Source: Ferrovum sp. (GTDB lineage: Bacteria; Pseudomonadota; Gammaproteobacteria; Burkholderiales; Ferrovaceae). Taken from it: a stretch of DNA of 52,680 bases. The DNA lies in NCBI GenBank assembly GCA_010435995.1, contig JAAGNR010000016.1:1-52680 (forward strand). The letters are read 5' to 3'. The translations under genes and the position numbers were made by a program. Under the pieces are notes generated by a model. It was not told the DNA's origin, ran no database searches, and saw only the letters and a program-made list of their open reading frames with translations. This document shows, one piece after another, positions 3-511 of this stretch (positions within the stretch are counted from its first letter, which is position 1; each line of letters begins with the position of its first letter).

Positions 3-209
3 ATTCACGGAGCACGAGCCGTTACCCGGTTTGCAGAAACCAAGGCAAAACCGGACAGTTGGTTGAGGCAACTGATGGGCAGGCGCAACAAAAATGTGGT
101 GGCGGTTGCCTTGGCAAACAAGAATGCCCGGATCGCTTGGGCGATTCTGGCGAAGGGCGGAATATTCCACCCTGATTACACCCCGGCTGCCGTTGTTGCC
201 GGTGCATAA
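3..209 (+). CDS. IS110/IS1111-family transposase, C-terminal end (partial)
   Basis: The frame is open from the window edge and ends at TAA 207-209, giving 68 residues. The text WLRQLMGRRNKNVVAVALAN followed by KNARIAWAILAKG is the C-terminal signature of the IS110/IS1111 transposase family (Transposase_20 domain), DEDD recombinases that use a noncoding RNA to choose their target. The N-terminal catalytic half lies outside the window, so intactness cannot be judged. About 220 nt of noncoding sequence separates the stop from the neighbouring broken gene. That long 3' tail fits the IS1111 branch, whose RNA lies downstream of the transposase, rather than the IS110 branch, whose RNA lies upstream. 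Family assignment is from recognised motif text only. Confidence 0.8.
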   Translation: MHGARAVTRFAETKAKPDSWLRQLMGRRNKNVVAVALANKNARIAWAILAKGGIFHPDYTPAAVVAGA

Positions 210-299
210 TCAGGGCGGTCGAGTACACCCGGTATCAACGAACGAGTAAAGGAGTGACACCACCGATTGCACAGGCAATCATGAAATGATGGCGAGACA

Positions 300-415
300 G
301 GTCAGACCGTGAGTGGCAAAACCTGCAGAGGTCCACAGTGCGTGAAGCACGCTATAGTGATCAGGAGCTACTCAGCGTATTCCATCAGGGATAGAAGCCT
401 TGTGCTTCACAGAAA
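300..415 (+). ncRNA. Candidate IS1111-type guide (seek/bridge) RNA
   Basis: Downstream of the transposase stop, GTGAAGCAC (342-350) and its exact reverse complement GTGCTTCAC (402-410) can form a 9-bp stem. The stem can extend inward: GCTAT at 351-355 can pair with ATAG...GC near 391-398 through a small bulge. The enclosed ~50 nt holds further short self-complementary segments such as GAGCTACTC (365-373). A structured RNA between transposase and right end is known for the IS1111 group. RNA ends, strand of transcription and guide loops were not determined, and no match to the target flank was recognised by eye. Confidence 0.4.
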
Positions 416-511
416 ATCCGGATGTATGGCTGCAATCTTTACCTTCTCAAAATCATTAATTGAAAGCTTGGCAAAAAAGTGGGCGTCATCCTCCATCAGT
501 AAGATGCGCAT
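407..511 (-). pseudogene. Truncated response-regulator gene (first ~25 codons), interrupted by the IS element
   Basis: Reading leftward from ATG at 511, the translation begins MRILLMEDDAHFFAKLS, the typical start of an OmpR-type receiver domain: a hydrophobic beta-1 strand followed by the acidic pair E-D-D. After about residue 24-26 (FEKVKI) the text no longer resembles a receiver, and the frame stops at TGA 409-407 after 34 residues, inside sequence I assign to the IS end. The ATG lies one base after the TAG of the upstream RND gene, so it was evidently the fourth gene of the TolC-MFP-RND operon and translationally coupled to it. No histidine kinase is visible; one could lie left of the window. 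What remains lacks the phospho-acceptor Asp and any DNA-binding domain, so it should be non-functional. Confidence 0.6.

What the first reader, a model, noticed from the sequence alone, without database searches (positions are those of the whole stretch)
210..435. Structured 3' tail of an IS1111-type element: candidate target-choosing RNA
The transposase end is of the IS110/IS1111 type. About 220 nt of noncoding sequence follows, with an exact 9-bp inverted repeat (342-350 / 402-410) that extends with a small bulge and encloses ~50 nt. RNA-guided target choice is known for this superfamily, with the RNA downstream in the IS1111 branch. Here the RNA sits directly next to a filled target site, so guide and target can in principle be compared.
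Basis: partly seen in the sequence, partly recalled or inferred. Interest (0 to 1): 0.6.

Follow-up and report, generated by a model that had tools for sequence, protein, structure and literature searches.

The report
Jumping-gene tail encoding target-choosing guide RNA
The start of this DNA window is the tail of a known kind of bacterial jumping gene that carries its own guide RNA for choosing landing sites; the RNA looks intact and its relatives' guides spell out where they landed, but this copy's end is cut off and its neighbour is not the site its RNA would choose.

Summary
The window opens in the last 68 codons of an IS110/IS1111-type transposase. The noncoding tail holds a seekRNA (bridge RNA) of the published IS1111 kind, with strong covariation in 12 sequences (window and 11 relatives). 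In relatives, two short guides beside a small hairpin match the two target flanks, and a third segment matches the element's right end plus target core. Held-out test of the right-flank guide: 66 element/flank pairs, mean 7.27 of 9 matches against 4.48 with flanks swapped.

The 9-bp inverted repeat is real but accidental: it joins pieces of two separate conserved hairpins and pairs no better than shuffled columns. The element runs past 435, to 484-487. The flank is not a usable target: the right end lacks 3 bases of the subterminal repeat and the 3-base extension, is fused through CGTC to the start of a response-regulator gene, and matches the guides only at chance level.

Probably a right-end-truncated remnant with an intact guide RNA, predicted target CTATAG|TGGACCTCT. 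A contig misjoin cannot be excluded. The mechanism is published; this is a new, damaged member of a known kind.

The parts
3..209 (+). C-terminal 68 codons and stop of an IS110/IS1111-type transposase; the rest is outside the contig
   Evidence: NCBIfam NF033542; 58% identical to residues 279-340 of a complete relative, L025; dN 0.12-0.15 against dS 0.86-1.4 over 62 codons versus four chosen relatives
284..437 (+). seekRNA/bridge-RNA region (covariance model R1, 158.2 bits; the window is one of the 12 model sequences)
   Evidence: pair counts
287..292 (+). outer stem TGATGG, pairs with 382-387 CCATCA
310..317 (+). stem closing the target loop (with 367-374), 6 of 8 pairs with changes on both sides among 12 rows
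327..335 (+). predicted right-flank guide AGAGGTCCA (predicts flank TGGACCTCT); register set by comparison with L101, one base 3' of the commonest offset
   Evidence: register from relatives and from close relative L101; coordinates
352..357 (+). predicted left-flank guide CTATAG, followed by core TG (358-359)
   Evidence: register from relatives; window position
418..429 (+). donor guide CCGGATGTATGG; in relatives this segment copies the right-end extension and core
   Evidence: 75 of 102 rows identical in 5 of 5 bases
479..487 (+). truncated right subterminal inverted repeat GTGGGCGTC (9 of 12 bases; CAT and the 3-bp extension GTA are missing)
   Evidence: complete repeats in L025, L033 and others
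484..511 (-). start of a response-regulator gene (MRILLMEDD...) fused to the element; CGTC 484-487 is shared by element and gene
   Evidence: the same kind of gene follows the RND gene in six genus relatives

Best explanation
Window 1 to 484-487 is the 3' part of an IS1111-family insertion sequence whose noncoding tail encodes an intact-looking seekRNA (bridge RNA). By the published mechanism, the transposase-bound RNA reads the right target flank with one guide (327-335), the left flank with a second (352-357), and the element's own right end plus core with a third (418-429). Shown here: the conserved structure, and the guide/flank and guide/end matches in relatives. Inferred: transcription, binding to the transposase and activity. 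This copy is most likely a right-end-truncated remnant: the last 6 element bases are gone, and the stump is joined through 4 shared bases to the first codons of a response-regulator gene that in genus relatives follows the RND pump gene. By inference it could not be cut out at its right end, and it does not sit at its guided target.
For: Conserved RNA: 52 of 399 order genomes, the own one included, match model R1. Covariation on 12 sequences: 96.1% of cells paired, 16 of 32 pairs with two-sided changes; no shuffle of 500 as high on four of five measures, 21 of 500 on the fifth, further pair types; 98.4% and 25 of 32 on 80 distinct rows fitted to the model, 0 of 500 on all five. Right-flank guide: 48 pairs, 7.23 of 9 against 5.40 swapped, highest of 500 swaps 5.79; held-out 66 pairs, 7.27 against 4.48, highest of 1000 swaps 4.94; 61 distinct guides, 7.26 against 4.50, 46 of 61 with at least 7. 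Left-flank guide: held-out 49 rows, 4.98 of 6 against 3.96, highest 4.24. Donor guide: 75 of 102 identical over 5 bases. Truncation: relatives such as L033 and L034 read GTGGGCGTCCAT and then a 3-base extension at the right end, the window GTGGGCGTC-ATCC; GAGGATGACG of the response regulator is present in 5 of 6 genus relatives. Flank against guide: 4 to 6 of 9 in free register at junction starts 481-492, against a swap mean of about 4.5.
Against: The left end and left target flank lie outside the contig, and the own genome holds no other transposase piece, so the truncation rests on one junction in one draft genome. The window was one of the 12 model sequences. No RNA or activity data. Not every relative fits: held-out L173, L181, L185, L232 and L236 match only 5 of 9. 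L181, whose left guide is the same as the window's, is one of these misses.
Confidence: 0.75

Rival explanations
1. The junction at 484-487 is a misjoin or collapsed repeat in the draft assembly; in the cell the element is whole and sits elsewhere.
For: The contig starts inside the element; the genome is a 96-contig draft, 86.8% complete; only 4 bases overlap at the junction; repeats are common break points.
Against: The junction lies inside the repeat, not at the element's true end, where a repeat-caused break would be expected (inference). By eye, other relatives also have damaged right ends near this place: L099/L100, L112, L233 and L240.
Confidence: 0.2
2. One reading: a complete element ending near 435, an RNA built on the 9-bp stem, and a filled target beside it.
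For: The stem exists exactly as described.
Against: The stem pairs at shuffle level in 12 sequences; conserved element sequence and the subterminal repeat reach 487; the flank does not match the guides.
Confidence: 0.03
3. The tail is conserved only as DNA (ends, or a transcription terminator), not as a guide RNA.
For: Part of the conservation (440-487) is the element end itself.
Against: Two-sided compensatory changes, and variable loops that track each element's own flanks in a held-out set, which end sequences or a terminator do not predict.
Confidence: 0.02

Closest known systems
IS1111-family insertion sequences with seekRNA (ISEc11, ISKpn4, ISPst6, ISPa11; Siddiquee et al. 2024, PMC11187229; abstract, introduction, first Results parts and sections 8-10 and 13 read)
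   Same: Transposase followed by a long noncoding region; subterminal inverted repeats with 7-bp left and 3-bp right extensions in relatives; top-strand guide before bottom-strand guide; guides differ between related elements.
   Different: This copy lacks the end of its right repeat and the extension; its left end is not in the contig; no RNA has been measured. It was not compared letter by letter with the named elements, because ISfinder is not on hand.
IS110-group bridge RNA (IS621; Durrant et al. 2024, PMC11208160, passages on IS1111 read)
   Same: Guides for target and donor plus a shared core in one RNA.
   Different: In the IS110 group the RNA is mostly in the left end, upstream of the recombinase gene; here it is downstream, as that paper reports for the IS1111 group.
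Unnamed IS110 family element on E. coli plasmid NZ_CP021538.1 (L159)
   Same: RNA of the same family (127.7 bits); both ends recognised; right guide 8 of 9 and left guide 6 of 6.
   Different: Different guides; sits beside an IS903B transposase gene.

Membership tests
IS1111 family of insertion sequences | DEDD transposase of the IS110/IS1111 type | tested here: inconclusive
   Only the last 68 codons are in the window (NF033542, 38.8 bits; no Pfam hit). A complete relative (L025) has PF01548 and PF02371.
IS1111 family of insertion sequences | Long noncoding region downstream of the transposase gene | tested here: met
   About 275 nt from the stop at 209 to 484-487.
IS1111 family of insertion sequences | Subterminal inverted repeats of 11-13 bp with 7-bp left and 3-bp right extensions | tested here: not met
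   Complete relatives have them. In this copy the right repeat keeps 9 of 12 bases and the extension is missing; the left end is absent. So this copy is filed as a remnant of such an element, not as a complete member.
seekRNA / bridge RNA | Conserved structured RNA from the noncoding region | tested here: met
   (structure and covariation; transcription not tested).
seekRNA / bridge RNA | Two short stretches matching both strands of the element's own target, top-strand guide first | tested here: inconclusive
   Met in relatives. For this copy the guide positions are present, but the flank beside it does not match.
seekRNA / bridge RNA | RNA of about 70-100 nt co-purifies with the transposase and is needed for movement | not testable with these tools
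   Needs RNA sequencing and a transposition assay.

The most novel reading that the evidence does not exclude
The guide of this lineage aims at the ends of other insertion sequences: its predicted target CTATAG|TGGACCTCT resembles (14 of 15 letters at best) a repeated motif found in 6 of 8 genomes of the genus, beside an IS21-like IstA-type reading frame in one of them. The resemblance itself is at chance level. A copy that has lost its right end but keeps its RNA could still supply guide RNA in trans to other copies.
Probability: 0.1. Interest if true: 0.45.

Novelty: new member of a known kind. Interest (0 to 1): 0.28.

Why it matters
The mechanism is published, so the find itself is ordinary. 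What it adds is a sequence-only, held-out check (66 right flanks, 49 left flanks) that target guides track each element's own flanks, with the same for the donor guide and the element's end, and a covariance model that finds the RNA in 52 of 399 genomes of the order. It also shows that a conspicuous inverted repeat can be an accident between two true hairpins.

Tried and rejected

First target guess TATAGTGTGGACCTC used the wrong register (13 places with up to 3 mismatches, against 28 for the reversed control). Corrected to CTATAGTGGACCTCT: 4 places in 4 of 8 genus genomes with up to 2 mismatches (best 1 mismatch, G004), against 17 places in 8 of 8 genomes for the reversed control, so no more than chance. 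A pattern drawn from the G004 and G000 places matches 11 of 100 relatives with up to 2 mismatches, control 0; an IS21-like frame beside the G004 copy was recognised by eye, and Pfam gave nothing for it. No element was found sitting at the predicted target: the 4 places in 1 of 399 genomes (G216) carry other target letters, and 1 viral contig match is a chance match without the RNA.

Exact guide pattern in genome contigs: 0. Rfam on the whole window: 0 at gathering scores. A name was looked for through annotation in plasmids and E. coli genomes; the rows shown (20 of 483 records, 12 of 70, 25 of 66) and four stretches give only 'IS110 family transposase' or no feature. Papers: four searches; no claim is made that anything here is absent from print.

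Choices and rows dropped before counts. First set: 73 of 76 model matches processed (two cut-off matches, L157 and L158, and a second weak match in L139 left out); 20 of 73 had no right end by my patterns; duplicates collapsed to 48. Second set: 15 of 85 had no right end by my patterns (L207, L172 and L214, and less clearly L258, L254 and L255, show a variant end by eye); L170 and L194 dropped as copies of set 1; duplicates collapsed to 66. Right-end patterns were widened a little between the sets, and the part of the RNA searched for the right guide was narrowed from 50 to 18 positions on the strength of set 1. The first set includes rows in which I first saw the pattern by eye, so only the second is a held-out test. 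Left-guide counts used only rows with a recognised left repeat (23 and 49). The donor count used the 102 rows with a recognisable right end and the CCGGAT-type motif; how many rows were dropped there was not printed. For the window, the commonest offset would read CAGAGGTCC; I moved the right guide by one base on comparison with L101. With the commonest offset the flank matches at most 5 of 9 at starts 475-500.

Full report
What is there. The contig begins inside a transposase gene; 68 codons remain (3-209) and match the end of the IS110 transposase model. The own genome (96 contigs, 86.8% complete) has no second copy of this DNA and no other piece of the transposase. In the first DNA search of relatives, 15 of 200 genomes, the own one included, had a match.

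The inverted repeat. No perfect inverted repeat in 210-435 is longer, and 19 of 300 shuffles do as well. Across 12 aligned sequences (the window and 11 relatives) the pairing sits at shuffle level, 51.9% against 51.2%, although it beats versions slid by 1 to 3 columns, 20.4 to 39.8%. The left arm overlaps the 3' half of one conserved local hairpin (338-341 with 347-350), the right arm the 3' half of another (394-397 with 405-408). Both hairpins carry two-sided changes. The match between them is an accident of this copy.

The RNA. The consensus structure on the 12 sequences has 32 pairs, 96.1% of cells paired and 16 pairs with changes on both sides; no shuffle of 500 is as high on four of the five measures, and 21 of 500 are on the fifth, further pair types. 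Sliding the partners brings pairing down to 31-47%. Model R1 built from this alignment finds the RNA in 52 of 399 genomes of the order, the own one included, and at 81 of 91 loci found by a separate transposase search (80 genome contigs, a capped list; 11 viral contigs), plus 4 of 4 plasmid stretches. On those 85 matches (80 distinct rows, two of them copies of model sequences) the structure keeps 98.4% of cells and 25 of 32 pairs change on both sides (that alignment was fitted to the model, so it leans toward it).

The ends. Complete relatives carry subterminal inverted repeats, for example ATGGACGCTCCC with GGGAGCGTCCAT in L025 and TATGGACGCCCACT with AGTGGGCGTCCATA in L033, with a 7-base left extension such as TAATGGA and a 3-base right extension such as GTA, as published for the IS1111 family (PMC11187229, introduction read). 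In the window the right repeat stops at 487 after 9 of 12 bases; CAT and GTA are missing. What follows, read on the minus strand, is the start of a response-regulator gene. In the six genus genomes with an RND match apart from the own one (L054-L059) the same kind of gene follows the RND gene, and in five of the six its start contains GAGGATGACG, which the window also has up to the junction. Two more distant genomes with an RND match (L060, L061) showed no such gene. Element and gene share CGTC (484-487). The gene's remainder was not recognised in the own genome: the best of 21 response-regulator matches is 54% identical, on another contig, with other sequence in the 300 bases before it.

Guides against targets. 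I first saw by eye that the stretch 5' of the small hairpin is the reverse complement of the right flank in several relatives. Systematic test: 48 distinct RNA/flank pairs, mean best match 7.23 of 9 against 5.40 with swapped flanks, highest of 500 swaps 5.79. Held-out set: 66 pairs, 7.27 against 4.48, highest of 1000 swaps 4.94, 28 of 66 with at least 8 of 9; none of the 66 RNAs is identical to one of the first set, and with 61 distinct guides the result is 7.26 against 4.50, 46 of 61 with at least 7. The left flank matches the stretch 3' of the hairpin: held-out 49 rows, 4.98 of 6 against 3.96, highest swap 4.24, 37 of 49 with at least 5; first set 23 rows, 4.70 against 4.05, highest swap 4.52, 15 of 23 with at least 5. 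The segment after the second hairpin copies the right-end extension and the first two flank bases: 75 of 102 rows identical in all five positions, 4.60 against 3.51 swapped, highest 3.73. Misses exist: L173, L181, L185, L232 and L236 have only 5 of 9 for the right guide.

This copy. By comparison with L101, whose neighbouring letters are alike, the window's guides are AGAGGTCCA (327-335) and CTATAG (352-357), so the predicted target is CTATAG|TGGACCTCT (the register is my reading, one base off the commonest offset). The flank beyond the junction gives 4 to 6 of 9 in free register, the level of swapped flanks. So the neighbour is not a guided target, or the end that would show it has been lost. 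The likeliest history is an element whose right end was lost in a rearrangement joined at four shared bases; a contig misjoin remains possible. By eye, other relatives also have damaged right ends near the same place (L099/L100 and L112; L233 and L240).

Compared with what is known. Position downstream of the transposase gene, top-strand guide before bottom-strand guide, and changeable guides are those of IS1111 seekRNAs (PMC11187229: abstract, introduction, first Results parts and sections 8-10 and 13 read). The donor guide and core fit the bridge-RNA account, which also reports the RNA in the right end of IS1111 elements (PMC11208160, passages read). The kind is known. I could not compare with ISfinder, so whether this lineage has a name is open.

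Noticed in passing
L159 (NZ_CP021538.1), L106, L162, L227: Flanks of L159, L106 and L162 spell GGCTTTGTTG(A/C)(A/G)TAAAT-type letters (L159 beside an IS903B transposase gene), and L227 shares TGTTGCATAAATC. These look like ends of IS5-type elements (end sequences recalled, not looked up). Target choice at ends of other insertion sequences may be common in this group.
   Followed up: partly
L103-L105, L193: Flanks of the TTTTGCAA|AGGT(C/T)T or TGCAA|AGGTCTC type, also like an insertion-sequence end (recalled).
   Followed up: no
L031 and L032 (genome G036): Two RNAs in one genome whose right guides differ at two bases (TTTTGGACA, CTTTGGGCA); one of these tracks the single base by which the flanks differ (TGTCCAAAA, TGCCCAAAA). 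L032 shares only about 240 bases with L031, so it is a partial copy.
   Followed up: partly
L042, about 2515-2600: An orphan right-end piece of this element type without the RNA or a transposase, beside another gene.
   Followed up: no
L107, L108 (genome G210): RNA of this family followed, after NN letters, by a transposase start; probably a scaffold gap rather than an upstream RNA.
   Followed up: partly
G000:C36:10641-10664, L169 and other genus loci: A repeated motif like TCTTGACA-AGGGGTCCACTTTAG in 6 of 8 genus genomes (11 of 100 relatives, up to 2 mismatches), beside an IS21-like frame in L169; probably an insertion-sequence end.
   Followed up: partly
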